From: Actinomycetota bacterium
Lineage (GTDB): Bacteria; Actinomycetota; Thermoleophilia; Solirubrobacterales; 70-9
Reading direction: 5' to 3'
DNA length: 64,000 bases
NCBI GenBank assembly: GCA_018268675.1
Contig: JAFDWB010000005.1
Coordinates: 1-64,000 of the forward strand
Positions 24,041 to 52,290 of this stretch are shown here, one piece after another. Position 1 is the first letter of the stretch. Each line of letters starts with the position of its first letter. The position numbers were made by a program, and so were the translations under genes. The notes below the pieces were generated by a model, which saw nothing but the letters and a program-made list of their open reading frames with translations, had not been told where the DNA came from and searched no databases.

Positions 24041-24113
<73 letters not shown>

Positions 24114-24240
24114 CTTCGGAAGTCCCTGCAAATCGTGTCCTTTCCAGAGCCGATTTCGTCTTGTCGGAGTTCCTCGCCGCCCCGCTTTTCTGCCACTAGT
24201 GGCACAACCCGCGGCGATTACCGCCGATACGCGGTGATCC
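24114..24240. other. Mobile-element left-end module at tRNA-Thr (palindrome plus 10-bp-phased repeats)
   Basis: Directly after the tRNA come GAAGTCCCTGCAA (24119-24131), then the perfect palindrome TGCCACTAGTGGCA (24191-24204), then three consecutive 10-bp units GCGGCGATTA, CCGCCGATAC and GCGGTGATCC (24211-24240). The same three components follow the tRNA-Ala fragment at 42625-42760. This looks like an integrase arm-site or attachment module of a family of tRNA-targeting elements. Protein binding is inference. Confidence 0.6.
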
Positions 24241-24254
24241 ACCCTGAATTGCAC

Positions 24255-24284
24255 TCGCTTCCGATCGGATCTGGAGCTAAGGTC
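24255..24284 (+). promoter_or_regulatory. Element promoter with GGAGCTA core
   Basis: CTCGCTTCCG...CTGGAGCTAAGGTC is a member of a promoter family in both elements (others at 42770, 51813, 58304 and 61446). TAAGGT fits a -10 element. It precedes the first module gene at 24357. Confidence 0.5.
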
Positions 24285-24356
24285 ACCGCGACCTGAAAAC
24301 GGCCGGGGCGCCGCACGAACGGCCCCCGGCCCGGCACCGAAAGGACACGCCTTCCG

Positions 24357-24620
24357 ATGCGCCCCAACCCTATCCCCGGGGAGACGAACGACGCCCGCGA
24401 CCGGCGCCACGAGGCGGCGGTCCTCGCCAGGGTGCTCTCCCTCCACCCGACCCATCTGACCGAACGCGAACTGCTCCTCAGCATCGTCGCGAGGGGCGAA
24501 GAGGTGGACGCCTACGAACGGGCGCTCCGCGACCTCGTCGGGACGGGGCTCCTGCGACTCGAGGGCGAGTCCGTCGTGCCCACTCTCGCGGCCCTGTGCT
24601 CCGAGGAGATCTCCCGATGA
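24357..24620 (+). CDS. Small winged-helix-like protein (element module A, gene 1)
   Basis: An 87-residue protein; residues 15-80 look like a winged helix (HLTERELLLSIV, YERALRDLVGTGLLRLEGESVVPT). It corresponds in position and pattern to 42937-43218 in the larger element. AAAGGA lies 11 bases upstream of the ATG. It is first in a chain of coupled genes; it may be a DNA-binding regulator of element functions. Confidence 0.7.
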   Translation: MRPNPIPGETNDARDRRHEAAVLARVLSLHPTHLTERELLLSIVARGEEVDAYERALRDLVGTGLLRLEGESVVPTLAALCSEEISR

Positions 24621-24844
24621 CCGGCCGGGCGGATGCGCCCTGGTCGCCCGACCCGGCCGCCGAGGACGGCCTGTCGGCCCGCCTCGGCGAGAACGTCCGA
24701 CTCCTGCGTGCACCTATCCACGTCGGTCAGGACGAGCCGCCTCCGCGCCGACGTCCGCCGCGGCCGGATCGGCCCGATCGGGTCCGGCCAGCGGCTCCCG
24801 CGGCCCGCCGGCGAGGACCGACCGCGGGGCGCGGGGACCGATGA
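24617..24844 (+). CDS. Degenerate XRE-like small protein (module A, gene 2)
   Basis: A 75-residue frame coupled at both ends (ATGA at 24617 and at 24841). The N-terminal half ends with SARLGENVRLLRAP, which looks like helix 1 of an XRE domain. The rest is Pro/Arg-rich and lacks the remaining helices. It is either a decayed XRE gene kept by coupling or a short peptide; no function can be assigned. Confidence 0.45.
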   Translation: MTGRADAPWSPDPAAEDGLSARLGENVRLLRAPIHVGQDEPPPRRRPPRPDRPDRVRPAAPAARRRGPTAGRGDR

Positions 24845-25152
24845 CCGTCGCCGGGCAGATCGGGCTGAACCTGAGGGGGATCCGCCGCAAGGCCTGCATG
24901 AGCCAGGACGATCTCTCCCGACGATCAGGCCTCCACCACTCCTACATCAGCCTGCTGGAGCGTGGCCGGCGGGTGCCCGGCCTCGACATCTGCATCAGGA
25001 TCCTCCGGAGCACCGGTGGCGATCCGCGCGATCTCCTCGAGGGGATCGAGTGGCACGGACCCCGAAACTGGGACGAGAAGGGCTGGTTCACGATCGCCGG
25101 TCTCGAGGGGCCGGCCGAGGTGCGACCGCCTCAGCCCGGGAGGAGCGACTGA
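24841..25152 (+). CDS. XRE-family HTH protein (module A, gene 3)
   Basis: A 103-residue protein with a full XRE/Cro helix-turn-helix at about 4-65 (SQDDLSRRSGLHHSYISLLE), then the tail motif LLEGIEW shared with other XRE proteins of the two elements. ATGA overlap with gene 2 and TGATG overlap with the response regulator. Confidence 0.82.
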   Translation: MTVAGQIGLNLRGIRRKACMSQDDLSRRSGLHHSYISLLERGRRVPGLDICIRILRSTGGDPRDLLEGIEWHGPRNWDEKGWFTIAGLEGPAEVRPPQPGRSD

Positions 25153-25880
25153 TGCCCGGCCCCGGACCCTCGGCGACGATCGCCCTCTGCATCGAGGACG
25201 GCGCCCTCCTCGACGACGTCTGCGGGCGGCTGGTAGCCGACCGCCACCAGGTCCTGCCCACCACCGGTGCCGGCGACGCCCTGCGCCTCTGTCGCCACGG
25301 TCGCCCCGACCTGCTGGTCCTCGACCTCGGCCTCCCTGACGAGGCGGGTCCCGGCCTGCTGCAGAGGATCCGCTCCGCCGACCCGGCCGACCGCCGCCTC
25401 GACCCGGACCTGCCGGTGATCGGCCTGGCGGCCCGCGGCGGACCCGAGGTGTGTGGCCTCGACCTCGGCGTCGACGACCTCGTCCAGAAGCCCTTCGCCC
25501 ACGAGGAGCTCCGTCGACGGATCGTCGCGATCCTCCGCCGTCGTCACAGCCGCGGCGAGGCCCCGGTCCTGGCCGGTGAGCTCCTGGTCGACCCGGGCCG
25601 TCGCCTGGTCATGGTCGGCGAGCGCGAGGTGAGCCTGTCGCGGAAGGAGTTCACCCTCCTGCGGGTCCTCGTCTCCGACCCGACGCGGGTCTTCTCGAAG
25701 GGGGAACTGCTGCGCGACGCCTGGGGTCCCGAGCTGCCGCCGGGCCGCACCCGGACGCTCGACTCCCACGCCTCCCGCCTGCGCCGCAAGCTCGACCCCG
25801 AGGGCGCGAGGTTCGTCCTCAACCAGTGGGGCGTCGGCTATCGCCTGCTGCCCCGCGAGGACGGGAGGGCCGGGCGATGA
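25152..25880 (+). CDS. OmpR-type response regulator (module A)
   Basis: A 242-residue two-domain regulator: receiver at about 8-120 with acidic pair IED, phospho-acceptor in VLDLGLPDE and conserved Lys in QKPF; OmpR/PhoB winged helix at about 140-235 (SRKEFTLLRVL, TLDSHASRLRRKLDP, GVGYRLL). No histidine kinase gene is in the window. It parallels 43222-43929 in the larger element. It may answer to a host kinase or act without phosphorylation. Confidence 0.88.
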   Translation: MPGPGPSATIALCIEDGALLDDVCGRLVADRHQVLPTTGAGDALRLCRHGRPDLLVLDLGLPDEAGPGLLQRIRSADPADRRLDPDLPVIGLAARGGPEVCGLDLGVDDLVQKPFAHEELRRRIVAILRRRHSRGEAPVLAGELLVDPGRRLVMVGEREVSLSRKEFTLLRVLVSDPTRVFSKGELLRDAWGPELPPGRTRTLDSHASRLRRKLDPEGARFVLNQWGVGYRLLPREDGRAGR

Positions 25881-26257
25881 GCCGCCGAGGGCGCGAGACC
25901 CGGGTGTCCCTCGACGGCCTCACCGGGCAGCAGGTGTCGATCCTCCGTCGGTTGACCGACGACTGGCTCATCGCGAAGGCGGCGGACCTACCCCTCCCGG
26001 ACGGTCACGAGGGTGATCCGGGGCGCGAGATCGAGGAGGTGGCCGCATTGGGGCGGCTGGCGTCCGGGTTGCGGGAAGGTGGGCTGTTCGTCCCCGATGC
26101 GATGGTCAGGGACCTTGTCGAGCGGTCGACCACGGAAACCCGTCTTCTCGAGGAGCTGGAGGAGGAATACGAAAACGAGCTGGCCGAGCACGACGCGTGG
26201 ACGGCGCTCCTGGCGCGCCTCTCGGAGGGGCCTCCGAAATGGGGGTCGGGACGATGA
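25877..26257 (+). CDS. Element-specific protein of unknown function (module A, paralogue 1)
   Basis: A 126-residue helical protein with GREIEEVAALGRLASGLREGG and an acidic coiled C-terminal stretch (LLEELEEEYENELAEHD). It is paralogous to the next gene (LDGLxxxQ..., EVxALGRLAxxL...). ATGA-coupled to the response regulator. No known family recognised. Confidence 0.65.
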   Translation: MSRRGRETRVSLDGLTGQQVSILRRLTDDWLIAKAADLPLPDGHEGDPGREIEEVAALGRLASGLREGGLFVPDAMVRDLVERSTTETRLLEELEEEYENELAEHDAWTALLARLSEGPPKWGSGR

Positions 26258-26616
26258 GCCCGGGGCGGGAGACGCGGACGCTCGACGGGCTCTCGGAGGG
26301 TCAACTCGACTTCCTGCGGGAGGTGGTGGGCCACGAACTGGTCGGCCGCGCCGTCGACCTCGGCCGCCTCAGGCAACTGCCCGACCCGCGGGCGCCGGTC
26401 AGGGAGGTGCAGGCCCTCGGGCGCCTGGCCTATCGGCTCGGTCTGGGAGCGGTGGAGGTCCCCGACCGGGAGGCGCGGGAGGTCGTCGCGCGGATCGCCG
26501 AGGAATTCCGCCAGATCGATGCGGGGCTGTTCGAACGCCACGAGGACGCGATGGTCCGACACCGTGCGCTCGGCGCACTCCTGGCGTCCCTCGAGGAGGC
26601 AGGGGACGATGCGTGA
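26254..26616 (+). CDS. Element-specific protein of unknown function (module A, paralogue 2)
   Basis: A 120-residue paralogue of the preceding gene: LDGLSEGQLDFLREVV, VREVQALGRLAYRLG and a helical tail EEFRQIDAGLFERHEDA. Overlaps it by four bases (ATGA). Tandem duplication within the module. Confidence 0.65.
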   Translation: MSPGRETRTLDGLSEGQLDFLREVVGHELVGRAVDLGRLRQLPDPRAPVREVQALGRLAYRLGLGAVEVPDREAREVVARIAEEFRQIDAGLFERHEDAMVRHRALGALLASLEEAGDDA

Positions 26617-26878
26617 CAGGCGCGAGGCCCTGGGGCGCTTCGGCCGGAACCTTTTCCACGCACGGCTCGGCGCCGGCCTCTCCCAAGCGGCGCTCGGGAG
26701 GCGGGCGGGGATCAGCCGCGAGCAGGTCGGCAGGCTGGAGGCAGGCCGCTCGGAATGCCGGTTCCTCACCGCGCTGCGGCTCGCCGAGGCCCTCGGCATC
26801 GGGGTCGAGGACCTCTTCGAGGGGATCTCCTGGACCCCGGATCATTACCGGTCCGACCCCGAGGGGAGCGGAGGGTGA
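26609..26878 (+). CDS. XRE-family HTH protein (module A)
   Basis: An 89-residue XRE protein: FGRNLFHARLGAGLSQAALG, then AGISREQVGRLEAG, ending LFEGISW, the tail shared by this element family. It overlaps the previous gene by 8 bases and the next by one. Confidence 0.82.
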   Translation: MRDRREALGRFGRNLFHARLGAGLSQAALGRRAGISREQVGRLEAGRSECRFLTALRLAEALGIGVEDLFEGISWTPDHYRSDPEGSGG

Positions 26879-27159
26879 TGGACGAGTTCTCCCGACATGT
26901 CGCCGTGCTCCTCGGGCGGCGGATCAAGCGACGCCGGCAGTTCCTAGACCTCTCCCAGGAGGCCCTGGCCGAACGGGCGGGCATCCACCGCACCCAGATC
27001 AGCCTCTTCGAGAACGGGGAGCGGATGCCACTCGTCGTCACGTTGGTGAAGCTCGCCGCCGCCCTCGGGGTCTCGGAGTCCCAGCTGCTCGTCGGCGCCG
27101 ACTGGAGGCCGGTCGGCCCACGTCTCGGCGAGAGGGCCGAAGGTGACCCGGATGGATAG
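26878..27159 (+). CDS. XRE-family HTH protein (module A)
   Basis: A 93-residue XRE protein (LSQEALAERAGIHRTQISLF), close in sequence to the gene at 49763 (LSQEELAFRSQIHRTQISLL). Coupled by GTGATG to the preceding gene. Probably a repressor of element promoters; targets unknown. Confidence 0.82.
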   Translation: MDEFSRHVAVLLGRRIKRRRQFLDLSQEALAERAGIHRTQISLFENGERMPLVVTLVKLAAALGVSESQLLVGADWRPVGPRLGERAEGDPDG

Positions 27160-27490
27160 CCCGGCGGGTCGCCTCGCCGCCGACCTGAGGAGACTGCGCG
27201 CGGAGGCCGGCGTCGACCAGGAAGAGCCGGCCTTCAAGGCCGGCCTCCACCGCACCCGGACGAGCCTGCGACGGTGCCGGATGGCTAGGTGATCGCGAAG
27301 GCCTGAGCGGCGCGGCTTCCCTCCTCAGCATGCTGGAGCACGGCGAGCGGGTCTGCCGAATCGACATACCGGTCCGGTTGGCGGTGGCGATAGTTGTGCC
27401 GCCTCGGGGAGCTGCTCGACGGCATCGACTCGATTCCGGGCCCGGGGCGACGGCACGTTCGTCTTTGGGAAGGTCGTCTGGCATGGAACT
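27152..27490 (+). pseudogene. Decayed XRE-family gene
   Basis: The ATG at 27152 reads LAADLRRLRAEAGVDQEEPAFKA then stops at 27292. Downstream, in other frames, remnants such as SMLEHGERVCRIDI and GELLDGIDS are recognisable as the rest of an XRE domain with its DGI tail. Several frameshifts are needed to rejoin them. From 27491 to 27877 I see no gene. This marks the decayed right side of module A. Confidence 0.65.
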
Positions 27491-27877
27491 GAAGCATTCG
27501 CCCGGCTGACCGAAGAGCCGCTCGACGAAGCTGCCACGCCCCCGCCTCCCGTTCACCGATGTCGCCGGTACTTGGAGCCTAGGCGCACCGTTGATTCGGC
27601 CCTCAAAGGCGCCGTCGACGATGTACAGCCGAACTTCATGCCTTCGATGCTGATCCCGAGCGGCAGTGCCGGTTCCGTGCTGATCAGGCAACCGCTGACC
27701 TAGAGGCGGGATGCGGGCTCCGTCGTCGGGGCACCATGACCGGTCTCGTGCGTCCCGGGCGCCCGCGACCTTCCGGGGTTCGGAACCGGAGAGCTCGGCG
27801 AAGATTCACACTCTGCCGTTGCCCGAGCTTCTCCGATTCGGCCTACCATGACCTACGGCCTTTCGGAGAAGCGTGCC

Positions 27878-29329
27878 TCAGTCGCGTAGGAGGTAGCGGG
27901 CGACCACCAAGGCGGAGCGACCCTTGACGACATTCGTGTATGAGTGGACGGTCACGAGTCGTCCTTCAGGGTCGAAGAAGAGGGCACTGGGGGTGTCCAG
28001 CCCGGGGACATGCGTGGCAACTCTGCCCCGCGGACCGAAGTTCATCTGCTGCTTCCCTGATGCAGACAGGCGCAGCAGGACCATGGTCAGGCTCTTGCCG
28101 ACCCCGATCGATCCGCCGATCAGGACGCGGCCCTGACCGTCCACTGCCATCGAGTTGAGGACTCCTCCGACGCCGGTACCGAGCTTCACCGTCGCAACAC
28201 CGTTCGTCCCGAACGCGGCGTCGGGCTTGCCGTCGGGCGCGATCCGCAGCACCCTTGCCGTGAACCTTTCACTCTCGTGCCGGGGAACTTCTGCGAGCGC
28301 GAAGAGGGCTCCGTGGAGCCCGCCCGTGACGGCGGTGTACCGACCCACCAGCGCGCCCTTCCTGCCAAACGCGCTCCTCGCCTGCCCGTCCGGCATCAAC
28401 TGCCCGAGCCCGATGTGACTCTTGTCCTTCACGCACGGATAGATGGCGCTCGACCTGTAGGTGATCGTCCCGGTCGGACCTACGAGAGGTTCTTCGATCA
28501 CCTCGGCACCGAGCGGCAGTTCGGCGAGGTGGCGACCGCCGACGAGGCCGTTCCGTCCGAATGCAGGATCGGGCACACCGCCTTCGCCCAGACGGGCCAC
28601 GAACCCCGCCGAGATGACACCGGGGCGGAACGCGTTGCGTTCACACGACCGTCCGAGACGGACGACGGCATCGCCGGTCACGACGATCCTCCCCTGAGCA
28701 TCGACCGTGATGCCGGTCGCCCGCACCGCAGGGCGCGAGCCGAGGCGTCGATGACCGTCCGTGGCGAACGGTGCCGGCAGCCCCAGGTCGGTTTCGACCA
28801 CGCCACCCTGCCCGAAGGAGGAGTCCAGGCTTCCGTCCGGGAGGAAGCGGAGGACCCGAAGTGCGGCGGGCCTGAACGCCACCATCCCGCCTTCACGCAT
28901 CGGACTCGGATTTTCCGCTTCCGGGTATAAGGAGGTCCCGGCGACCAGCAGGCGACCCTGTGGGTCCAAGGTGAAGCCACCGAGCACGAATTCGCGCCCG
29001 GCCGCGGGCGGCAAGGCGAGCGACCCGACGCCGCCGAAGGCTTCGCCGGTGCCGCCGAGATCGCTCAGCAGCTGGATGGACGCCCCGTCACTGACCAGGA
29101 GGCTTCCGCTCTGGGTCGACGCGCCGAGGGCGACGGAAGGAGACGCTTCCGAGGGAAGCCGGACCACTCCACCGCTGCCGAAAGTCGGATCGAGGACTGC
29201 TGCGGGTTGGCCTGCCGACCCGCCCTGGGGCGCCGCACGAGCTGCAGTCGGAACGCAGATCGACAGGATCGCGAGGCTGACCACGCCGACCGACAATAGA
29301 CGGGGGAGCAGCGCTCGCATGACATACAT
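27878..29329 (-). CDS. Secreted delta-60 repeat (beta-propeller-like) protein
   Basis: About 483 residues with a signal peptide (RALLPRLLSVGVVSLAILS...ARAAPQ), then at least six delta-60-type repeats, each with a xDxxFGxxGxV core: LDPTFGSGGVVRL, LDSSFGQGGVVETDL, PDPAFGRNGLV, SAFGRKGALV, PDAAFGTNGVATV and NFGPRGRVATHV. Start at ATG 29329; 29320 is an alternative. Such proteins are frequent in Thermoleophilia and myxobacteria and probably act outside the cell; role unknown. Confidence 0.85.
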   Translation of the reverse strand: MYVMRALLPRLLSVGVVSLAILSICVPTAARAAPQGGSAGQPAAVLDPTFGSGGVVRLPSEASPSVALGASTQSGSLLVSDGASIQLLSDLGGTGEAFGGVGSLALPPAAGREFVLGGFTLDPQGRLLVAGTSLYPEAENPSPMREGGMVAFRPAALRVLRFLPDGSLDSSFGQGGVVETDLGLPAPFATDGHRRLGSRPAVRATGITVDAQGRIVVTGDAVVRLGRSCERNAFRPGVISAGFVARLGEGGVPDPAFGRNGLVGGRHLAELPLGAEVIEEPLVGPTGTITYRSSAIYPCVKDKSHIGLGQLMPDGQARSAFGRKGALVGRYTAVTGGLHGALFALAEVPRHESERFTARVLRIAPDGKPDAAFGTNGVATVKLGTGVGGVLNSMAVDGQGRVLIGGSIGVGKSLTMVLLRLSASGKQQMNFGPRGRVATHVPGLDTPSALFFDPEGRLVTVHSYTNVVKGRSALVVARYLLRD

Positions 29330-29592
29330 AACCCGGGTCGTCACCGCCAGTCGCGGACGCCCTAGACACCGAATTGGAGGGTCCGGTGGAGCCTCCACGC
29401 GCAGCCTGGCCAGACATCCATGCAGAACAGCCCTCATAGTCGAACTCTTGCCCCCTTCCAAGTGTTATCCCCTGCGCGATCTCTCGAGTGGTACCCAGCC
29501 GTCTTGGAGCAAAACACCTCCGCGACTCTCCCCACGAGCCAGCCGCCCTGGGTCGCGGCCCGCCCGGCGCGCCGCGACTCCGTGCTCACATG

Positions 29593-30395
29593 CTATTCGG
29601 CTTCGACACTTTCGGTAAAGGCTTTCCATGCTGGCCGTTGAGCGCGACTTGCTTTCAGGAGTCCGCAGTGATTCGGCCATTCGGCTCCGTTGGAGACATC
29701 TTGGATGTTGTAGTAGAGAACGTGGTCAATGTTGAGATGTTTGCGCTTCCTCAGCAGCATCGCAAAACTCTGCCGGACGAGGATTGCCTGCTCCGATTCC
29801 GACACCCTGGGGATCTTCGCTTCGTCACTTGACTTGACTGGGAAACCCAGCTCGGTGACCCAGATCGGGGCACCCGGATCGATCCCGTGAACGTTCGAAA
29901 TCGATCGCTGGACTTCCTTGGCGAGCTGTTCTGCATCTTCAGCTTCGGCGCCTTTCACCGTCCCAGGTGCGTGTAGGCCTTTTTTGGGATGTTTAGGGTC
30001 TCGAACCTTGAACACATAAGGGTGAATGCTGATTCCCTGATACGGATTGGCGAGTTTTGGTTCAGCATGGTCGAGCTGGTACTTCACTTCTCTCAGGAAT
30101 TCGCGCGGCGTGATGCGTCCCGGCTTACCGGCCTTGAATCCGAACAGCCCGGGCAGGAGGAACTGGACGCCGGTTACTCCTGCTTTTCTCACTTCCCGCA
30201 CCATTTCTTCATAGTATCCGGCGAACTTTTTGGCGTAGGCGAGCCCTTCCTTCGTCGTACTGCTCGGCGGCATGTTCGGCTCATTGCCGATTTCCCAGTA
30301 CTTGGTGTCATATGAAGTTCCAGGTCCATATTTTTTCATCAAGCCTATGGCATCCGGCATACCGTCGGACGGGATTTGGGTCGGATACCCGCAGC
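29593..30395 (-). pseudogene. Glycoside hydrolase (GH-A clan-like), 5'-truncated
   Basis: The surviving C-terminal part has the acid/base motif YWEIGNEPN, HPYVF, and nucleophile WVTELGFPV, with a C-terminal WKAF, as in clan GH-A enzymes (GH39/GH5-like). The N-terminal strands of the barrel and any start are missing: homology begins at about GYPTQIPSDG and no signal peptide is present. At 30395-30400 it meets a PIN-like gene on the other strand, so a deletion or insertion cut it. Its lower GC differs from its neighbours. Confidence 0.7.
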
Positions 30396-30397
30396 CA

Positions 30398-31275
30398 CAC
30401 CTGCTCGATACCAGCATCATGTTCAGCGAGCTCGTGGGAGTATGTCGCCACGGCAGGTCCCGGCTGCTCACGTCCGCGAAGACCGGCTCGGCGATCCTCT
30501 ACGTGCCCACCAACGTCGCCGACGAGATCCCCGAGAAGATGCCCCGGATCGCCCGGGCCGCGAAGGTCACGGTCGAGGCGGTGGAGGTGCCTGGCGAGAT
30601 CGCTACGCACCATGGGTCCGCGTGGTCGAGGCGCCCCCGGCGCGCGATGACCTGCAGCGCTCGGACCTCGAGTCCGCCGACCCGGACGACCTGGCATTCG
30701 CCGACGCGGTCGCGCTGATGGGGCCGGTGCTTGCCCTCTCCGAGGACGGCCACCTGACCTCTCGCGGGCTGGCCACGGACTCCTGGCGAGATCTCCCACA
30801 GTTGATCGAGGCGCTGAAGACCGCCGACGTCACCCTCAAGGTGACGCCGGAGCTCAGCGCCATCGTCATCACCGAGGCGGCGAAGGCAGCCCGCCGTCAT
30901 CCGCGCATCGCCGCCACGCTCGCCCTGATGGCTTTCCTGGTTGCCGGACCCTTTGGGCCGGAGCGGACCCGACTCAACAAGGACCGGGCCCGGACGATCG
31001 TCGGCGTGATCCTGCGAGGCCTGATCCACTTGCTGGAGACCCACAGAACATCGAGCCAGGAGATCGCCGCCCGCCTGGCGCCCGGATCGGCGGAGGGGGC
31101 TGTCCGCATCGTCGTCGCCGTCCTCGCGCGCCTGCGGGAGCCGATCGCGGAGGATTCCCTCGCCGCTCGAGTCGATGGTCAGGTGGATTCTGGACTCTTG
31201 ACGACCACCCTGGCCGAATGCCCGGCCTTCGTCGAGACGTCGGCGGGGTGGCAGCTCGGGCGACGGGCTGTCTGA
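30398..31275 (+). pseudogene. PIN-like domain protein, 5'-truncated and frameshifted
   Basis: It begins inside LLDTSIMFSELVG, the first strand of a PIN nuclease with its catalytic Asp, with no start codon before it. It continues to TVEAVEVPG, then one base is missing near 30591-30600 and the reading continues as RYAPWVRVVEAPP to 31275. The C-terminal half is helical. PIN domains are Mg-dependent ribonucleases. The next gene follows by 36 bases, so they were probably an operon. Confidence 0.6.
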
Positions 31276-31311
31276 CGCACCCGCTGCGCTCGCGTTAACG
31301 TCGGCCCGGAG

Positions 31312-32443
31312 ATGGACGAGACCTTCGTCATGACGGGGAACCGCCTCTTCGCCGGGAACCAGCTCTCGGGTGAGATGGCGCGGATCCAGACCACGATCAG
31401 AAGCCGGATCGACGCCGTGGGCGACGACGCCCTTCTCCAGGCCGACGCCGACGCCTGGGCCGCCGGCATGGCGGACGAGCTGCGACTCGACCCACCGGTG
31501 GTCCACGTCGCCGAGGCCAGTCTCCATCCCGGTGATCGGGTCGACGTCGACTGCACCAACGCCGCCGGCATCAGCTTCGGCACCTCCGAGTTCGGCCATG
31601 TGATCCGGGAGGGATATGAGCTGGAGCTGCAGATCCCGGTGAGCGGCGACGCGTTCCTCCTCGCCACCCAGGTCCTTGGTGCCCCGCCGCTGCCGGGCGG
31701 CATCCGCGCGGAGACCATCGTCTGCGGGTGGCGATGGCCCGACGTGAAGGGGGGCCCTGCCTTCGACGCCGAGGTAGCCACCTACAAGAACGAACTGCAA
31801 CGCGGAAATGATGTCCTCAAGAACGCGATCGAGATCGCCAACGCCGGCATCCCGGACTTCGCGATCGAGCAGATCGAAGCCCGCAGAAGCTCGATCCTCG
31901 GGCAACGCGATTTCCTCGGTTCACTCACCATCCCGGTGGTCACCGACGCCGAGGCACCCCGGGAGTTCGATGCGCCGCCGCCGATCGAGCGGCGACGAAC
32001 GGCCGCGACGAAACTCGAGGCGGGCAGGGACGAACCCCCGGAGCGCGAGATGGGGCCGCAGCTCGACGAGTTCTACGGGCACATCCTGGGCGTCATCCGC
32101 GCCGTGGGTCGCGCGCTCGAACGCTCCCCCGGCACCTTCTCGGCGCCGGCGAGGAAGCCCTCCGGGACCACATGCTGGTCACCTTGAACACGCACTACCG
32201 CGGCGCCACCTACGCGGAGGCGTTCAATGGCGAGGGAAAGACGGACATCCTGATCCGGGTCTACGACCGCAATGCCTTCATCGGCGAGTGCAAGTGGTGG
32301 ACCGGCCCGAAGGCGATGGATGAAGCTCTCGACCAGCTCATCGGCTACACAACCTGGCAGGACTCGCGTGTCGCGCTGATCTTCTACGTCCCGACCCGGG
32401 ACATGGGCTCGACCATCGAGACGGCGAAGAGGAGTGCGCCGAC
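31312..32443 (+). pseudogene. Predicted PD-(D/E)xK nuclease, frameshifted, 3' end lost
   Basis: The N-terminal ~280 residues are of unknown fold (ELELQIPVSGD, helical AFDAEVATYKNEL). After a one-base gap at about 32144-32151 the frame continues with HYRGATYAEAFNGEGKTDIL and FIGECKWW, giving the Asp and Glu-x-Lys of a restriction-endonuclease-like active site. Beyond STIETAKRSA the frame only mirrors the opposite STAND gene, so the natural C-terminus seems lost near 32440. Likely part of a defence pair with the PIN-like gene. Confidence 0.6.
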
Positions 32444-35400
32444 GGACCCGGTCGGTAGCTGGTCGGCCGCGGCCTGCGCCCGTGCGGCGGTCTCGGCGAA
32501 GCGTGGGCTGGGCTCCCCCAGGGTGCGCCCATGGCCGCCGTTGCGCATCGCCGAGCGGATCGCATCGGCGAACGAGCGCCGTTCGTCCCCTCCCGAGGGC
32601 GGATCCAGCTCCAGAAGCGACGCGACCGCGACGGGCTGCACGAGCACGACCTGCCAAGGGGTCTCGGCCAGGAAGTCCACGAGTGCCTCCCTGTCCGTGC
32701 CAGGTCTGCGGGCCTGGTCGAGGATGGCCTTCCAGGCGGCCTCGATCTCCGCCCCCTCAGTTCGACCAACTCGTCGAGCTTGTCTTCCCGGAAACCCGGG
32801 ATCACCAACCGCCAGAAGATCCTGGTGAGTTCCCGTCGCCTCCAACCTTCCAGCGTCGGAAGCGGCGCGATCAGGCGGGCGAGGAGATCGACGAGTTTTT
32901 CACCCCTCGCCTCGCCGAGCATCTCGATCCCGTAGTCGTCCCAGGGAACGGCGCGGTAGCCCCCGCCCCCGTCCTCCTCCCGCTCCCTCCGAAGCCGACC
33001 GATCCACAGGTCGACCACCCTTCCCGGGTCGAGCTTGCCGAGCTCCGCCACTGCCTCATGCGCGGCGTAGCCCGGTTCCTCCACTTCCGCCAACCGGGCC
33101 GACAGGGCGTCGAGCTGATCATCGTCCAGCTTGTCCACGCCGTACTCGACGACGGCGTGGAACGGCATGTCGCCGCCGCGTCCGTCATTCGCCGCCGCCC
33201 CGGGGGCGAGGGCCTGCCGGAGCGCCAGATCAGGTGCCAGCCTGCCGATCCTCGGCAGGCTGCTCGAGATCGTCCCGCGTACCCGCGGGTCGTCGTCTCG
33301 CGACAGTCTGTCCAGTATCTGAAGCTCGGTCGCGGTCGGGTCGCCGAGCCAGCTTCCGGCGCTGATGTAGTTCGCGGCAAGCCTGCGGACGGCCGCATCG
33401 CCGCTCGCCGCCGCGCCCGAGAGCTCCTCGTCGACCTGGCCTCGATCTGCCCGGACGACGGCCAGGGCCATCGGCGCGAGAGATGCGACGGGCCCGTCGG
33501 GGTGCGTGAGGCCCCACCCCCAGAGGCCCTCCGCGTACGCGGCGCCGGAGTCGTGCAGGAGCAGCAGGACCGCCCCTTCGGCCGATGGGGCGTCGGCCAG
33601 CCTCCGCTCGACGATCTCTCCGAGCATCTGCTCCAGGAACGCGCCCAGGGCATCGCCGTCCTTGCAGCGATCGGCGAGGATCGTGGCGAGCCGGCGGTTG
33701 CGGGCATCGACGGCCCGTTCGTCCAGCAACTCGAACGGCCACGCAATCGCACCGAGGAGCCAGGCCTCGTCGTCCCCGAGCGCCTCGAGTAGCTTCGCCG
33801 CGCGCTCGCGCGTGGCCTGATGACGGTCGTCCTCGGCGTGTCGGCGAAGGGTCTTCGCCAGGGCGGCACGCACCATCGGGTCCGACGTCCCGCCGACTAT
33901 CTCCCCGATCGCGTCGAGAAGCCTCAGCTTGTCGGCATGCCATTCGGCGACGACCTCCTCGCGAACAGAGTCGGCGGCGGCGCCGAAGGGCAGCCGTAGC
34001 GCTTCCTCGAAGAGCTTCGCGGCGACGACCCGTTGGCGCGGAGAGCCGTGGAGTGCCCGGTCGACGATCAGTGCGCGGACCTGGGAACGCCATCGCTCGG
34101 TCCGCTCGATGGACACCAGGTAAGGGTGGATCTCCAGTCCGCGCCCCTCCCAACGGGTCCGGGTCCCGTCGCGGTCGAGAATCGCGCCGAGAAGGTCGAG
34201 GGGCGAGTTCGCGTGGTCGTCGACATCGTCGGCGGAGGACCGCTCGGCGACCAGGTCGATCAGTGCCTGGTGGTGCTCGGGGCCCATGTCGTAGCCGCCC
34301 AGTTCGCGAAGCAGACGGAGCGGGTGGTCTGCGTGCGAACTGGTCCGCCGGACATCGTCCCGACCCAGCCGCCAGAGTCGATCCATCGCGGGCCACACGA
34401 AGTCCCGATGGCGGCCGACCGACCCGAGGAGCGCCGGCAGCTTCTGCAGCACCGAGTTGTCGTCGATCTCGAGGCTGGCGAAGTCCCAATTGGTGGTGGT
34501 TGCGGGATCGCCGAGCGCCGTGTCCACCAACTCGAGTATGCGGTCGGGAGCGTAGACCGCCGCGGGCGCGACCAGGTCGATCAGTTGCTCCCGTCCCCAG
34601 GCGTCCCGCCGTTTGAATCCGTCGAGGATCTCCGACCAGACCTCGCCGAGCAGGGAGGTCCGGGTGGCCGTCAGCCGCCAGTCGATCGCCCCGAGATTGA
34701 TGAGCAACTCCGAGGCGGAGGAGGCGCCGTATCGACGCCAGAGCTCCAGAGCCCGTCCCGTGCCACGACCCTGGCGGTCGACACACGCTTCGAAGAGGAC
34801 CTCATCGGCGAGAACGTCCGGGGTGAGACGGCGACGTGACCCGAGCTGAAGGAGGAGACCGGCGTCCTGGACGTCGCCGAGCCAGCGGCGTAGTTTCGAG
34901 GTAGGGACATCGAGCTCTTCGGCGACGAGCTCCATCACCGCGTTGTCGTTTTCGTTCAGCGGCCCCAGGGCGGCCAGGAGGACGAGGAGCTCCTGTGCCT
35001 TTCTCCTGGGAACCGTCGTCGTGATCCGGCCGCGTTGCTCGGCGACGAAGCGATCCATCACTGCGTGTCGGAGTTCGGCCGGTCCCTCTGCCGAGTCGAC
35101 GTCGAAGGCGCCTTTCGCGATCAACCCACCGCCCAGGACCGTGATCAGCGGGGACTCCGGGGTCGCATCCGCGAGGCGCTCGGCCGCACCCGAGCGACCG
35201 CCGGTGGCGTGCTCCGCGAGCACCGCGACATCTTCCGCCGCGAGAGAACCCAGTGGCGGGAGCACCAGTCGCTGACCGAGCTCAACGCCGGCATACGAGC
35301 AGGCCTCGGCGATCCGCTCGAGCCCGGCCGGCCGGCTCACGAGGACGACCGTGAGCGGATCGGGACGTCGGGTCGTCGCCAACAAGGGCGTGATCTCCAC

Positions 35401-36201
35401 GTCTTCACGCTGGGCGTCGTCGACGAACACGATCGTGTCCTCGAGCGGAAGGTCCTCCAGGATCTCGGCCGTGATGGTGGCTCCGTCGAGGGCGAAGAGG
35501 ACCCTCTTCCCGTCCGCCTCCAGAGCTCGGGCGGCGTCCCGAAGCAGTCGCGTCTTGCCGATCCCCCCACGGCCAGGCTGCACCACCACGCGGACTGAGG
35601 GAGTCTCGGCGGCGTCGACCAGAGCGCGGAGCTCGGCCTGCCGACCGACCAACGGAAGGTCGTGGCGGAGCAGGAGCCCGGCTTTGTCGAAAGGCAAGAA
35701 GAAGTCCTCCGGGGCGACGAACGCGACGGGGCTGTCCGGGCCAAGGAAGGCGCGGCTGACTCGTGCGCCGAATGCATCGGCGACGATCAGGCGGGCCTTC
35801 TCGCGCGGGACCTCACCGCGGATCCTCTGGCCGATGCCCTCGCCTGACTCGATCCTCCAACCGTCGAGGCCGTCGATGTAGTCGCTCACCTTGGTGCCGA
35901 CCGCACAGGTCACCCAGATCTCGTGTTCGTCGGCCTCGTAGGTCGTCCCCTTCACGGTCTTTTCGGCGTGCCTGATGTTGAAGGCCTTGCGATGCCTGCA
36001 CTGGATGGTGCGCTTGCGGCCGTCCTTGAGGTCCGCCTCGATGTCGATTTCTTTCTGGGCCTCGCCAGTCTTGCCGTAGCGTTCCGCGCGCTCCACGTCG
36101 GGCATAGCGCGCACTGCGGCCAGGCAGAAGCTCTCGAATCGATTCCATTCGAACGAGTCCTGGCCGAATGGCAAGACGCGAAGGGGAAGCTTGTCGGTCA
36201 C
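32384..36201 (-). pseudogene. Mrr-like nuclease + STAND NTPase + helical repeats (Avs-like), frameshifted near the 3' end
   Basis: About 1270 residues from GTG 36201, with GAGGGG four bases upstream. Residues 15-155: Mrr/REase-like domain with EIDIE (D53) and QCRHRK replacing the usual QxK. Residues 185-500: STAND P-loop NTPase with Walker A GRGGIGKT (210-217) and Walker B IVFVDDAQ (D261, D262). The remainder is a long helical array with HEAT/TPR character (DPRVRGTISSSLPRIGRLAP, DPMVRAALAKTL). A missing G in the run at 32752-32756 shifts the last ~120 residues. The architecture matches bacterial nucleotide-binding antiviral sensors; the target is unknown. Confidence 0.7.
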
Positions 36202-36403
36202 CGCACCCCTCGACCGCGAAATCCGGACGATCGCACCGCGCCTGCAAACCGACCTCTCAAGACGTTCATCCGCCGAAGGTACAGCGGCGTCCTTCATCGG
36301 TCTCGCTCGCACCCTCACGGGCCATCGTCGTGATGGTCAGGCGTCTGACCCGGCGATGAGTGGCAGTGAGGGGTCCGCCTTCCGTGCCGCCTCATAGCAG
36401 CGC

Positions 36404-36535
36404 TCATGAAAACGTCGAACGTTGACCTCGTCCCTGGGAGGGGCCCCCTTCGATCGTCAACATCGCAAGACCGTCGCGGACGACCACGACGGGCCGAAAA
36501 TACTGGCGGATGTGACCGCACCCCTCGCAGCGCAT
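36404..36535 (-). CDS. Small CxxC protein
   Basis: A 43-residue frame beginning MRCEGCGHIRQYF: one CxxC knuckle, then VVVVRDGLAMLTIEGG. It starts five bases after the stop of the winged-helix-like gene and would share its LexA-box promoter. Too short for firm family assignment; could be a zinc-ribbon fragment. Confidence 0.5.
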   Translation of the reverse strand: MRCEGCGHIRQYFRPVVVVRDGLAMLTIEGGPSQGRGQRSTFS

Positions 36536-36540
36536 CCCGG

Positions 36541-36741
36541 TCACGTCCTGACCAGTTCGTCGTAGTGGATCGCGGCGCGCGTCGGGGTGACCGTCCCGTC
36601 CCCTGCGTCGACGAGCAGCCCGACTCGTGCCAGCCACTCGACTACCTCCCTGTCCCTTGGCTCGACTCGCAGAGCTGCCGGCCGGCAGGCGATGGCGGCG
36701 TCAAGAATCGCCAACCTTTGCTCATCTCTCTTCACGAACAT
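36541..36741 (-). CDS. Small winged-helix-like protein under a LexA-type box
   Basis: A 66-residue protein, RLAILDAAIACRP...VEWLARVGLLVDAGDGTVTPT, with the end of a winged helix. The ATG lies inside a perfect 24-bp palindrome that contains a LexA consensus, so a repressor there would block both promoter and start. Possibly a small regulator of damage-induced genes. The true start could be a few codons downstream. Confidence 0.55.
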   Translation of the reverse strand: MFVKRDEQRLAILDAAIACRPAALRVEPRDREVVEWLARVGLLVDAGDGTVTPTRAAIHYDELVRT

Positions 36742-36753
36742 ATGTTCGTGAAG
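36730..36753. promoter_or_regulatory. LexA (SOS)-type operator
   Basis: The 24-bp perfect palindrome with centre CGAACATATGTTCG matches the Gram-positive/actinobacterial SOS-box consensus CGAAC-N4-GTTCG. It lies between the minus-strand small-gene pair and the plus-strand coiled-coil gene at 36865, upstream of the E2-E1-JAB-patatin operon. Control by LexA is established for such boxes; which direction it serves here is inference. Confidence 0.75.
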
Positions 36754-36864
36754 AGTTGCTTGCGTGGCAAGCGACCTGTAGGTCGGTCGAGGCGGTCCAT
36801 AACGCGGTTTTTGCGGGGCGACAGGCGGCGGGTCACTGTCCGTCGCGCGCCATACGCTGCATTT

Positions 36865-37353
36865 GTGGGTGCCCCCCTGGAAGCGGCCGCGGAAACGGCA
36901 GATCGAGAACGCCTCATGGCGGAGTACACGTCGATGGCGGCGAACGTCTCCGAGCAGCGCGAGCGCGCGGAGCGTCTGCAGGGCCTGGCCGACGACGCGC
37001 GCATCCAGGCCGAGGCACAGGAAGCGGCACTACGCGAGTTGGGCGAGCTCGTCGGGATCGACTCCCAGTTGCGACTCGAGCAGCTCGACTCCCGCCTAGG
37101 CGGCCAGCGACTGCAGGAGATCGCCGTCCAGGTGTTGGCCGAGCAGAATCCCGGCGGCGAACCGATCCACTACAAGGACTGGTACCGGCTGCTGCGGGAG
37201 GCGGGATACGTCGTCTCCGGCAAGGATCCGCAGGCGACCTTCCTCTCCTCCGTCTCGCGCTCGCCGCATGTCCGCGCGGTCGGGAACCGGACCGGCCTCT
37301 ACGTCGTCGCCGACGACGGTCGCGCCGACGACGAAGCCGCGACCGCGGCCTGA
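36865..37353 (+). CDS. Coiled-coil protein with C-terminal HARE-HTH-like winged helix
   Basis: 162 residues from GTG 36865 (ATG 36916 is an alternative). Residues 12-75 form a charged coiled coil (SEQRERAERLQGLADDARIQ). Residues 90-150 carry HYKDWYRLLREAGYVVSGKD and FLSSVSRSPHVRAVG, the pattern of HARE-HTH domains found with restriction enzymes and chromatin proteins. It lies 155 bases upstream of the metallo-beta-lactamase gene. Probably a DNA-binding accessory; link to the following operon unproved. Confidence 0.65.
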   Translation: MGAPLEAAAETADRERLMAEYTSMAANVSEQRERAERLQGLADDARIQAEAQEAALRELGELVGIDSQLRLEQLDSRLGGQRLQEIAVQVLAEQNPGGEPIHYKDWYRLLREAGYVVSGKDPQATFLSSVSRSPHVRAVGNRTGLYVVADDGRADDEAATAA

Positions 37354-37508
37354 GTCTCGTCTCACCTGAAGGACCTGGCGACCGCGAGGGCGGCGGCAGT
37401 TTCCTCGTCGCCGCGACCGTCTGTAGATACAGCAGCTAGAAGCATCCGGGCGCCTCGCTACCTTCTTTGGAGACGGGCAGAGTATCTATCGAGGAGGCAC
37501 CGACACCG

Positions 37509-38663
37509 ATGAGTGAATTCGAACTTCCCGAGCGCGGCATCGTCTTCTGGGCGGTGGGCGTCGGCGACAGCACGACCGTCGTGGTCGACGAGGAGGCGAT
37601 CCTCCAGATCGACCTGCATCACCTGGAGTCGGCGGAGGAGGACGACGACCCGCGGGTCCCGATCGTCGACCGACTGGTCGAACTCCTCCCGGAACGCGAC
37701 GGGAAGCCCTACCTGGCGACCTTCGCGGCCACCCATCTCGACAAGGACCACATCCTCGGCTTCGCCGAGCTGCTCGACCGGGTGACGATCGGAGATCTGT
37801 GGTTCACGCCGAAGGTCTTCCGCGATGTCGACGAAGGCGAGCTCTGCGACGACGGCAAGGTGTTCGTCGATGAGGCCGAACGGCGGATCGATGTCGTCAA
37901 GGGCGACGACAGCGCCGGCTCGGGCGACCGCATCCGGATCATCGGCCACGACGACCTGCTCTCCGAACCGCCCTACTCCGACCTGCCGGCGGAGACCTTC
38001 ATCAGGCCGGGCGAGTTCATCACCGCGCTCGACGGCACCGACCACGTCGACGTCTTCCGCGCCTTCGTCCACGGCCCCTTCAAGGACGACGGCTCCAAGG
38101 AGCGCAACGACACCAGCCTCGCCCTCCAGATCACGCTGAAGGAGGGCACGGAGACGCTGAACGCGCTCACCTTCGGCGATCTCCGCTATCCCGACCTGAA
38201 GGCCATCTTCGACCGCTCGGAGGCCGACGACCTTCTCTGGCACGCGATGCTCGCGCCGCACCACTGCTCGAACGGGGCGATGTACTGGGCCGACGAGACC
38301 GGCGGTGAGGCGAAGCTGAAGCGCGACATCCTCGACGCGATGGAGGAGGCAGCCGAGGAGACCTCGATCGTCGTCGTCTCCGCCGACAAGATCCCGACGG
38401 GCAACAAGGCCGGCGACAATCCGCCACACGCGAAAGCGGCGAACCGCTACCGCGAGATCGCCTCCGACGGGGTCATCTGCACCGGCCAGCACCCGAGCGC
38501 CGAGGCGCCGGAGCCGATCGTCTTCGAGGTCTCCGCGGAGGGCGCCGGCCTGCGCGACGCCGCACTGGTCGAGGCGAGCATGTCGAAGCTCGCCAAGGAG
38601 ATCGGCGAAGCCCGCGGCGAAGACGAGGTGCCCGCCGGTCGGGTCGGCTTCGGGCGGCGGTGA
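37509..38663 (+). CDS. Metallo-beta-lactamase-fold hydrolase, ComEC-like, coupled to E2-E1-JAB-patatin
   Basis: A 384-residue MBL-fold protein. The metal motif is ATHLDKDH (HxDxDH, as in ComEC/Rec2-type enzymes, near residue 78); later ligands are likely in APHHCSNGAMYW and the histidine-bearing GQHP. It begins GIVFWAVGVGDSTTV. ATG 37509 has GAGGAGG 11 bases upstream. Its stop overlaps the next gene's GTG (GTGA), so the two are translationally coupled. MBL folds hydrolyse esters, amides or phosphodiesters; here it might cut a conjugate, nucleotide or lipid product. Confidence 0.85.
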   Translation: MSEFELPERGIVFWAVGVGDSTTVVVDEEAILQIDLHHLESAEEDDDPRVPIVDRLVELLPERDGKPYLATFAATHLDKDHILGFAELLDRVTIGDLWFTPKVFRDVDEGELCDDGKVFVDEAERRIDVVKGDDSAGSGDRIRIIGHDDLLSEPPYSDLPAETFIRPGEFITALDGTDHVDVFRAFVHGPFKDDGSKERNDTSLALQITLKEGTETLNALTFGDLRYPDLKAIFDRSEADDLLWHAMLAPHHCSNGAMYWADETGGEAKLKRDILDAMEEAAEETSIVVVSADKIPTGNKAGDNPPHAKAANRYREIASDGVICTGQHPSAEAPEPIVFEVSAEGAGLRDAALVEASMSKLAKEIGEARGEDEVPAGRVGFGRR

Positions 38664-41600
38664 GCAAAGGCCAGCAACTCGCGCTCAGACAGCTCGAGGC
38701 GATCGCCGCCGCCGGCGAAGGTCTCGAAATCCTGTCGGTCCGCGAGCCCGAGTCCGAGGAGGATTCGCTCGTCGCCGAGGTCTCGCTCGACTGCGGCGGC
38801 TTCGAGCAACGCGACGGCGGGATCGTCCTGCGCCAACGCGAGCGTGTCGAGCTCTTCGTCGCCGCGGACTTCCCCTGGGCGGCCCCCTCGGTCATCTCGG
38901 CGCACCGGCGCTGGGCCGGATCCCCACATGTCCAGTGGGCGAGGCTGCTCTGCCTCTACCAGGCCGGGTCCGAATGGCGGCCGGAGGACGGGATGTTCGG
39001 ACTCCTGGAACGACTGGAGATGTGGCTGCGCCGGGCCGCCCTCGGGGAGCTGGACCCCGTCGGGGCACCTCTTCATCCACCGGCGGTATACGTGAGCGGT
39101 GATGCGCCGCGCCTCGTGGTGCGCGCCGACGCACCCGAGGTCGGCGATCGACCCTGGCTCGGGATGGCACGCACCCGTCGGGCGAGCGACATGCGCATCG
39201 ACGTCGTCGGCTGGAGCGCGGATCTGGGGGAGGACGGCGAGCGGCTCGTCCCCGCCGTCCTCCTGCCGACGCCGATCGACTGGGAGTACCCCGAAGACGC
39301 CCGGGCGCTCCTGGATGCGCTCGCCGATCGCGGTGTGCGGTGGGGACTACTGCTCGCCCTCCTTCGGCTCGGCTCGTTGAGCTGGCCCGAGGGCTCCGGG
39401 ATGCCGCTGATCGTCGGCTCGCCGATGCGCCGCGGTGCCGACGGCACCCGAAGGCAACATGTCGCCGCCTGGTACTTCAAGCCGCGGATCACCTGGGGCA
39501 TCCGCGCCTCACTCGCCGCCCTGTCCGAAGACGACACGCGCAAGAAGAAAGGCGAGGAGCTCGAGGAGATCCTCGCCGAATGGGCCGACAATGCGAGCGT
39601 CGCCTGGTGTCGGGTCGACGAGGTCCGACCGGAGGTGACCGAGCGGCGTGACTCCGGGTCCTCCCTGCATCGGGTGTTCGCCGGTAAGAAGGTCTGCCTC
39701 TGGGGATGCGGCGCGATCGGCGGGCACGTCGCGGAATGGCTGGTCCGCGCCGGCGTCGCGCAGCTCGACCTCTACGACAAAGGCGTCGTCTCGGCCGGCA
39801 TCCTCGCGCGCCAGCCCTACGTAGACGCAGACATCGGGCGGGCAAAGGCGCGGGCGCTTGCCGACAGGCTCACCACGATCGACCCCGACGTGGTGATCAA
39901 CGCCCGCGTCGAGAACGTCCTCAAGGGCCCGCTCAAGTCGCCCGACTGGCACGACGGCGCCGACTTCGTCATCGACGCCACCGCGGCGCCCCTCGTCGCC
40001 TCGAAACTCGAGGCGGTGAGACGCGAGCACGGGAGCGGCGAGACGACGGTGATGGCGATGATCTTCGGTCACACCGCCGAGCATGGGATCTCGGTCCTGG
40101 CGCCTCCGGGCCACCCGGGCGGGCCCGCCGATCTCCTGCGCCGGGTCGGTCTTGCCTGCACCTCCCGACCCGGCCTTGGCGGCTTCGCGGAGGAGTTCTG
40201 GCCCGACCCACCGCGGGCCGACGACTTCCAACCGGAGCCCGGCTGCTCGGAGCCGACGTTCAGGGGCTCCGGTGCCGAGGTCGCAGCCCTCGCGGGCACC
40301 CTTCTGGCCGCCACCGCCTCCGACATCGCCGCAGACGCCTCCCGGGCGAGCGGGCGCCTCCTCGCCCTTCCCAGCGCCCCCCACCGGGGTCGTAGGCAGG
40401 CGAAGCTGAGGTGGGAGCCCGACACGGTGCTGGAGGACGGGCTCGGCCGCTACCAGGTCCGCGTCTCTCCCGCCGCGCTGCGGAGCATCCGTGCCGAGGT
40501 CGCCCGCAACGAACGCGCCGCCGACCGCCGGGCCGAGACCGGCGGGGTCCTCTTCGGCCGCCGCGACACCGCTGCCGGGGTCCTCTGGATCGACGAGGCA
40601 TCCGGCCCGCCGCCCGACAGCATCGCGAGCCCCGAGGAGTTCGTCTGCGGCACCGCCGGGGTGAAGGATCGTGACGAGGCGATCCGCAAACGGACCCGGC
40701 GCGCGACCGGCTTCGTCGGGATGTGGCATACGCATCCGGCCGGACCGGCGATCCCGAGCCCCCGCGACGTCGGCAGCATGGCCGAACTCGTCTCGATGGA
40801 GCCCCTGCCGGAGACCTTGATGGTGATCTGCGGCGGCGAGCCGGCGGCGAGCGAGATCGGCGCCTACGTCTTCGCACGCGAGGAGCTACCGAAGCCATTC
40901 GGGACACTGGTCGTCAGCGACCGGCGAGAGCCGGTGGCCGAGCCAGCTTCGCCTCCCCGCGATGTCGGGCTTGCGCTCTCCGGCGGAGGCTCCCGGGCGA
41001 TCGCCTTCCACCTCGGTTGTCTGCGCGCACTTCACGACCGGGGTGCGCTCGAGCGCGTCCGCGTCGTCTCCGGTGTCTCGGGCGGGGCGGTCGCGGCGGC
41101 CGCCTACGCCTTTGGCAATGGCAGCTTCGCCGATTTCGAAGAGGAGGTCGAAACGCTCCTGCGTCGGGGACTCGGGCGTGAGGTGGCACGGCGCGCGCTC
41201 CTCAGCCCTCGTCTGCTGAGCTCCACCGCGGCCCAGGTCGTCTCCGCCTCGACGGTGCTCGGCACGGCAGCGCGCTCGCGCCTCGGCCTCGGCGGCCAGC
41301 GCCCGCATCCGCCCGCGCGCCGCTGGGCGACCAGGACCGACGCCCTCGAGGCGACCCTGGCGGACCGGCTCTTCGACCAGCTCACCCTGAACTCACCACG
41401 GCGCGAGGGTCTCGACGTGATCCTCACCGCCTCGGACCTACGCAGCGGGTCGGCGGTCCGCTTCGGCAGCCGGGAAAGCGGGATCTGGCGCGCAGACCTC
41501 GGTCGCATCGCCGAACCGATCCAGGTCGCGACCGCGGTCGCCGCCTCGGCTGCGTATCCGCTCTTCCTGCCGAGCATCGATCGGGAGTTCGGCTTCGAAG

Positions 41601-42082: not shown

Positions 42083-42168
42083 GTCGAGAGCCGAGGCCGA
42101 ACCGCCCTACCCTGGTGTGTCCCCGACTAGCTCCGCTGAATCTGAACCCGGCCCAAAGGGGGTTTGCG

Positions 42169-42560: not shown

Positions 42561-42577
42561 ACCTCGGAGCCTGACCG

Positions 42578-42760: not shown

Positions 42761-42769
42761 GTTTTCAAC

Positions 42770-43218: not shown

Positions 43219-43221
43219 GCG

Positions 43222-52256: not shown

Positions 52257-52290
52257 GCCCGGGATCAGCCCCCTCATCGGGCGAATCGAC

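What the first reader, a model, noticed from the sequence alone, without database searches (positions are those of the whole stretch)
24114..24240. Shared end-module of tRNA-targeting elements: palindrome followed by 10-bp-phased triplets
After tRNA-Thr and again after the tRNA-Ala fragment (42625-42760) the order is GAAGTCCCTGCAA, then TGCCACTAGTGGCA, then three GAT-containing units exactly 10 bases apart. Such helically phased repeats next to a tRNA end look like integrase arm sites, or a nucleoprotein start site. The element family seems to use different tRNA genes with the same module.
Basis: partly seen in the sequence, partly recalled or inferred. Interest (0 to 1): 0.7.

Follow-up and report, generated by a model that had tools for sequence, protein, structure and literature searches.

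The report
Shared attachment ends of tRNA-targeting elements
The palindrome and evenly spaced repeats after this tRNA gene are one end of the docking site that a family of mobile DNA elements uses to insert into several different tRNA genes, and the same docking ends recur across a whole order of soil actinobacteria.

Summary
Confirmed and extended. The order (GAAGTCCCTGCAA, 14-bp dyad, three GAT units 10 bp apart) is present after tRNA-Thr (24041-24114) and after a tRNA-Ala(CGC) 3' fragment (about 42578-42624). It is best read as the right arm of an attachment site. I also found a left arm upstream of the tRNA fragments: the same half-sites in a 24-bp dyad (one helical turn longer) and the same units inverted. 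The genome holds tandem arrays of integrative elements at tRNA-Thr and tRNA-Ala, bounded by direct repeats that begin at the anticodon loop. A right-arm model hits 33 of 232 genomes of the order (Solirubrobacterales); 44 of 47 inspected hits follow a tRNA or tRNA 3' fragment (Ala-CGC/TGC/GGC, His, Gly, Thr; Val in the own genome). Genomes with a close integrase homologue carry the module (17 of 19, against 16 of 213 others). The integrase has the catalytic residues and a probable N-terminal arm-binding domain. Correction: GAAGTCCCTGCAA is the 5' half of a tRNA terminator hairpin. Which protein binds the dyad and repeats is untested. Known kind of system, unusually conserved arm design.

The parts
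24041..24114 (+). tRNA-Thr (GGT), complete; target gene of the outer element
   Evidence: ARAGORN, Rfam tRNA 67.9 bits
24117..24147 (+). tRNA terminator-like hairpin that contains GAAGTCCCTGCAA (weak hairpin in this copy)
   Evidence: sequence; fold z -1.6; perfect hairpins at the same place in relatives
24191..24204 (.). right-arm dyad TGCCACTAGTGGCA
24212..24241 (+). right-arm 10-bp-phased units, GAT at 24216, 24226, 24236
24115..42577 (+). stretch E1: from the tRNA-Thr right arm to the tRNA-Ala junction; regulators and defence cargo, no integrase recognised
42397..42504 (+). left arm: TTCGAACC, dyad GGGCACT-N10-AGTGCCC-type (42426-42449), inverted units (ATC at 42452, 42462, 42474, 42484)
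42578..42624 (+). tRNA-Ala (CGC) 3' fragment, core repeat of the attachment site
42632..42644 (+). terminator half GAAGTCCCTGCAA after the tRNA-Ala fragment
42705..42718 (.). right-arm dyad TGCCACTAGTGGCA of element E2
42726..42756 (+). right-arm units of E2, GAT at 42731, 42741, 42751
42625..64000 (+). element E2 (conjugative-type); continues beyond the window to the tRNA-Ala fragment at contig position 126121
59377..61035 (-). tyrosine integrase: probable N-terminal arm-binding domain, catalytic domain, C-terminal Mrr_N domain
61366..61809 (-). candidate excisionase gene next to int (no Pfam match itself; the counterpart on contig C74 matches HTH_17 at E 0.0025)
43222..43929 (+). OmpR/PhoB-type response regulator near the right arm of E2 (considered as the binder of the repeats)

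Best explanation
The finding is the right (P'-type) arm of the attachment site of a family of tRNA-targeting integrative elements. An element-encoded tyrosine integrase with arm-binding and core-binding parts would exchange strands in the anticodon loop of the target tRNA gene (the core). The element brings a tRNA 3' half with a terminator, so the host tRNA gene stays whole. Left and right arms (dyad plus 10-bp-phased units on one helix face) would bind the integrase's N-terminal domains and/or an excisionase, fold the DNA and set the direction of recombination. After integration each element begins with a right arm and ends with a left arm. A tRNA 3' fragment persists at each junction, so further elements can insert there, giving arrays of conjugative elements and decayed cargo elements. 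Shown by sequence: paired arms, core repeats, arrays, tRNA range, integrase co-occurrence and domain make-up. Inferred: protein binding to the arms, the crossover point, and mobility.
For: Arms at both ends of elements in tandem arrays with direct tRNA 3' repeats, reproduced in a single-contig genome with int about 1 kb from each right arm. 44 of 47 right-arm hits follow a tRNA or tRNA 3' fragment, regex background 2.6%. Fragments start at the anticodon loop for Ala and Thr. Module in 17 of 19 genomes with a close integrase homologue against 16 of 213 others. Catalytic residues conserved. The N-domain's top three structural matches are arm-type binding domains of island integrases, with weak Arm-DNA-bind matches in 7 of 14 members. 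tRNA-Thr lacks the module in most genomes of the genus, so the site is polymorphic.
Against: No binding, excision or circular form is shown. The N-domain match is modest (Z 5.3-5.7) and Foldseek alone gave nothing below E 0.001. Two f2 genomes with a close integrase lack a detected module and 16 genomes have the module without a close integrase. Three of 47 hits have no tRNA upstream. The genome is a 95-contig assembly. Related genomes are not independent observations.
Confidence: 0.85

Rival explanations
1. Same attachment site, but the 10-bp-phased units are bound mainly by a head-to-tail oligomer of a winged-helix excisionase (one monomer per helical turn), with the dyad as a nucleation or integrase site, rather than by integrase arm domains.
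For: RdfS, a winged-helix directionality factor, binds one monomer per 10 bp of attP (PMC11963761). A candidate HTH_17-type gene lies directly upstream of int on C74, with counterparts at the same place on C55 and C7.
Against: The units occur in both arms, while lambda Xis bends one arm (PMC4880445). In one small G090 element (L144 3682-11324) no excisionase was recognised although both arms are present (not searched exhaustively).
Confidence: 0.35
2. The dyad and repeats are an operator of the response regulator or other regulators encoded just inside the element; OmpR/PhoB-type regulators bind tandem direct repeats one turn apart (own knowledge).
For: An OmpR/PhoB-type regulator is encoded shortly after the right arm in E2, and response-regulator sequence is seen in E1 and the C7 element.
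Against: The same units and half-sites lie at the far (left) end of the elements, tens of kb from these genes. Elements without such a gene (C7 78.2-85.6 kb; both G090 elements) keep the arms.
Confidence: 0.05
3. The module is a replication or conjugative transfer origin (nucleoprotein start site).
For: Dyad plus phased repeats resembles iteron-type origins; a Replic_Relax protein is encoded.
Against: It is present at both ends of elements, next to a tRNA core, also in small islands in which no conjugation or replication gene was recognised.
Confidence: 0.03

Closest known systems
Arm-and-core attachment sites of tyrosine integrases (lambda attP; ICEMlSymR7A attP with five 10-bp P/arm sites)
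   Same: core flanked by two arms with about 10-bp protein sites; integrase with an arm-binding domain; likely excisionase gene near int
   Different: a 14-bp dyad in fixed register with four direct units in the right arm, the same half-sites 10 bp further apart in the left arm, and one arm design shared by elements of at least seven tRNA targets
P4-like genomic-island integrases (HPI, HAI7)
   Same: the N-terminal domain's best solved matches are their arm-type binding domains; tRNA-targeting islands (own knowledge)
   Different: low sequence identity (15-17%); C-terminal Mrr_N domain here; the best matches of the full-length model are Tn1549 integrase and XerA
ICE-CIME accretion arrays at tRNA or gene 3' ends (ICESt1/ICESt3-type, SGI1, IMEs)
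   Same: tandem arrays of full and decayed elements that keep their end sites and target 3' ends as direct repeats (PMC5704250)
   Different: here a tRNA-Thr element encloses tRNA-Ala junctions, and one arm design spans all members
Actinobacterial ICEs at tRNA genes (AICEs and T4SS ICEs; Ghinet et al. 2011)
   Same: tyrosine integrases at tRNA 3' ends, closely related integrases using different tRNAs, occasional tandem arrays (PMC3218068)
   Different: that survey found no AICEs in Rubrobacteridae; the large elements here carry a VirB4/TcpF-like ATPase

Membership tests
arm-binding-domain tyrosine recombinases | catalytic R-K-H-R-H-Y residues | tested here: met
   R265, K290, H370, R373, H396 and Y406 are invariant in 17 homologues; Phage_integrase Pfam E 3e-18
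arm-binding-domain tyrosine recombinases | N-terminal arm-binding domain | tested here: met
   three strands plus helix; top three structural matches are arm-type binding domains, Z 5.3-5.7, rmsd 1.8-3.2; sub-threshold Arm-DNA-bind Pfam matches. Moderate strength.
arm-binding-domain tyrosine recombinases | binding of arm-type DNA sites near the core | not testable with these tools
   needs footprinting
attachment site (attP/attL/attR) | core direct repeat at both element ends | tested here: met
   tRNA-Ala and tRNA-Thr 3' fragments; three tRNA-His copies in G090
attachment site (attP/attL/attR) | arm sites on both sides of the core | tested here: met
   left and right modules with shared half-sites and units
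attachment site (attP/attL/attR) | excision to a circle with attP and empty attB | not testable with these tools
   no reads or cultures; relatives without the module at tRNA-Thr exist
integrative and conjugative element (element E2) | integrase, relaxase-type gene and mating-pair ATPase within one bounded element | tested here: met
   int and Replic_Relax, VirB4/TcpF-like ATPase, bounded by tRNA-Ala fragments
integrative and conjugative element (element E2) | self-transfer | not testable with these tools
   needs mating
CIME (decayed element that keeps its end sites) | attachment ends without integrase or transfer genes | tested here: met
   C7 78.2-85.6 kb: right and left arms with UvrD-type and other cargo, no integrase recognised
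AICE | FtsK-like translocase instead of T4SS, with autonomous replication proteins | tested here: inconclusive
   VirB4-like ATPase points to a T4SS; AICE replication families were not searched

The most novel reading that the evidence does not exclude
The arm sequence is a shared recognition code: integrases and excisionases of this family read common arms while each reads its own tRNA core, so an element can be assembled, or a decayed cargo element mobilised, by an integrase with another tRNA target. This would explain one arm design across at least seven tRNA genes and a tRNA-Thr element that encloses tRNA-Ala junctions.
Probability: 0.25. Interest if true: 0.65.

Novelty: new variant of a known kind. 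Interest (0 to 1): 0.47.

Why it matters
In the systems known to me, att arms are element-specific and hard to find by sequence. Here one conserved arm design, with a rigid dyad-to-unit register and a one-turn difference between left and right, marks element ends across an order of bacteria and several tRNA targets. That gives a direct way to delimit integrative elements and their defence cargo in these genomes, and a natural data set on how arm geometry and core specificity evolve apart.

Tried and rejected
(1) Raw pattern CCTGCAA-N-CACTAGTG over 201 genomes: the reversed control pattern gave more hits than the pattern itself, so hit counts are no evidence; only the context of the hits was used, and G015 was a chance hit without tRNA. 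(2) My first idea that CCTGCAA is the crossover core of the tRNA-Thr element was dropped when tRNA-Thr 3' fragments were found at C55 126736 and 129135 and terminators at that place in relatives. (3) Response-regulator operator and replication/transfer origin: see rivals. (4) Rfam: only tRNA at 24041, a sub-threshold tRNA at the Ala fragment and one weak chance match on the other strand. (5) Foldseek with the N-domain alone gave no match below E 0.001; the arm-domain matches rank first only after re-alignment by VIA-align. (6) Model searches in 10-kb flanks of 80 integrase loci found arms in only a few Solirubrobacterales loci and in none of the Streptomyces-type ones; int can lie farther than 10 kb from the arms, so this test is weak. 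(8) The GAT-distance statistic over all hits (93 of 138 at multiples of 10 against a null mean of 10.4) is partly circular because the model selects for it; the nine pattern-found copies are the fair test.

Full report
OBSERVATION. The sequence reads as described. tRNA-Thr(GGT) is at 24041-24114. It is followed by GAAGTCCCTGCAA (24119), TGCCACTAGTGGCA (24191-24204) and GAT at 24216, 24226 and 24236. The second copy follows a tRNA-Ala(CGC) 3' fragment ending at 42624: GAAGTCCCTGCAA (42632), the palindrome (42705-42718) and GAT at 42731, 42741 and 42751. The palindrome is far above chance in the window (2 against 0.03 expected) and, as an exact word, found only at these two places in the genome. 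GAAGTCCCTGCAA alone is not rare.

MORE COPIES IN THE SAME GENOME. Searching the 85-nt Ala fragment found further copies at C7 20570, 78149 and 85630 and C55 126121, besides a native tRNA-Ala at C7 20271. The copies at C7 20570 and 78149 carry the complete right arm; the one at C55 126121 keeps the terminator motif but its arm is cut off by transposase sequence; the one at C7 85630 looks like the end of the array. The palindrome on C7 is GGGCACTAGTGCCC, a symmetric variant. The half-sites are those of the right arm, but the dyad is 24 bp instead of 14, i.e. one helical turn longer (10 of 11 aligned left arms; one is 25). tRNA-Thr 3' fragments lie at C55 126736 and 129135, each next to a left arm. 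The outer tRNA-Thr stretch therefore runs from 24115 to about 126735 and encloses two tRNA-Ala junctions (42578 and 126121). A third system sits at tRNA-Val on C74, with its own integrase about 4 kb away.

WHAT GAAGTCCCTGCAA IS. In the single-contig relative G090 the same place reads AAGAAGCCCCTGCTAACGCGGGGGTTTCT, a perfect hairpin directly after tRNA-His. In relatives where tRNA-Thr lacks the module the gene is often followed by a similar hairpin. So this part is best read as the tRNA gene's intrinsic terminator, carried by the element so that the tRNA gene stays complete. In the window copy the hairpin is weak (z -1.6). Many left arms carry a similar TCCCTGCAAATC motif about 42 nt before the anticodon loop; I cannot explain its conserved loop.

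DISTRIBUTION. A covariance model of the right arm hit 33 of 232 genomes of the order; the left-arm model hit 16 of 50 of the family. Titles of related loci show the order to be Solirubrobacterales. I read the context of 47 right-arm hits: 41 have a tRNA T-loop just upstream by regex, two more are tRNA-Thr missed by the regex, one is a truncated tRNA-Gly (44 of 47; regex background 2.6%). Targets: Ala-CGC, Ala-TGC, Ala-GGC, His-GTG, Gly-GCC and Thr-GGT, plus Val-CAC in the own genome. Identity among fragments starts at about tRNA position 32, the first base of the anticodon loop, for both Ala and Thr, which places the crossover in the anticodon loop (inference).

SYMMETRY AND PHASE. Over 35 right arms the dyad keeps complementarity through changes on both sides: pair 4 C-G 32/A-T 3, pair 5 G-C 25/C-G 9, pair 7 A-T 18/G-C 6/T-A 6. 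GAT units sit at +18, +28, +38 and often +48 from the centre. Nine copies found without using the phase keep the 10-bp spacing. Units and half-sites thus lie on one face of the helix in a nearly fixed register, which argues for one nucleoprotein complex.

THE INTEGRASE. The tyrosine recombinase at 59377-61035 has a C-terminal Mrr_N domain. Homologues from the order share the catalytic residues. AlphaFold2 gives an N-terminal three-strand-plus-helix domain. Folded alone (pLDDT 82), its best three structural matches are arm-type binding domains of P4-like/island integrases (Z 5.3-5.7), and 7 of 14 members weakly match Arm-DNA-bind_2. Smyshlyaev et al. describe this domain as recognising arm sites near the recombination site (PMC8138268). 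The module is present in 17 of 19 genomes with a close homologue against 16 of 213 others (p 7e-15; related genomes are not independent). In G090 int is about 1 kb from each right arm at the tRNA-His array.

MECHANISM. Best supported: attachment-site arms. Shown by sequence: two-sided arms, core repeats, tandem arrays, tRNA range, integrase association and domain make-up. Inferred: that integrase arm domains and/or a winged-helix excisionase bind dyad and units. For comparison, ICEMlSymR7A attP has five 10-bp P/arm sites, all needed for efficient integration, and its RdfS binds one monomer per 10 bp (PMC11963761); lambda uses arm sites plus Xis (PMC4880445). Arrays with decayed members match the CIME accretion model (PMC5704250). 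Elements between the arms include large ones with Replic_Relax and a VirB4/TcpF-like ATPase and small ones with defence or repair-type cargo.

NOVELTY. The kind of system is known; actinobacterial ICEs at tRNA genes, also in tandem, are described (PMC3218068). My literature searches found no description of these elements in this order, but only open-access full texts were searched. What seems new is the conserved arm design and its use with at least seven tRNA genes.

LIMITS. The own genome is a 95-contig assembly with 3.1% contamination; the array reading rests on contigs C7 and C55 but is reproduced in single-contig G090. Model E-values are rough. No binding or excision evidence exists here.

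Noticed in passing
window 37467-42082 (+): 6A-MBL anti-phage system (NF058524 and NF058523, above cut-off); its E2-E1-JAB protein carries an extra C-terminal patatin domain.
   Followed up: partly
window 59377-61035 (-): The integrase carries a C-terminal Mrr_N domain; homologues from other families of the order end before it.
   Followed up: partly
L012 (G000 C7) 250-322 and 549-621: Two tRNA-Ala(CGC) genes in tandem with a left arm between them; in G114 and G128 too a left arm runs into a complete tRNA-Ala.
   Followed up: partly
left arms, e.g. window 42530-42545; L144 11450-11475: Motif TCCCTGCAAATC about 42 nt upstream of the anticodon loop, with conserved loop sequence; function unknown.
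   Followed up: no
L026/L071 (G182): Left and right arm without a tRNA gene, with only a short tRNA-Ala-like stretch (GATCGCACCCAGGAGGTCG) between motif and dyad.
   Followed up: no
L017 (G000 C55) 8655-10001 (+): MerA-like flavin oxidoreductase inside element E2 (below the MerA cut-off).
   Followed up: no
window 52689-55385 (-): 898-aa protein of element E2 without any Pfam, NCBIfam or PADLOC match.
   Followed up: no
window 31312-32187 (+): Match to PADLOC candidate defence family PDC-S54 (E 1.5e-27), next to a large nSTAND-type NTPase gene (32338-36318, minus strand).
   Followed up: no
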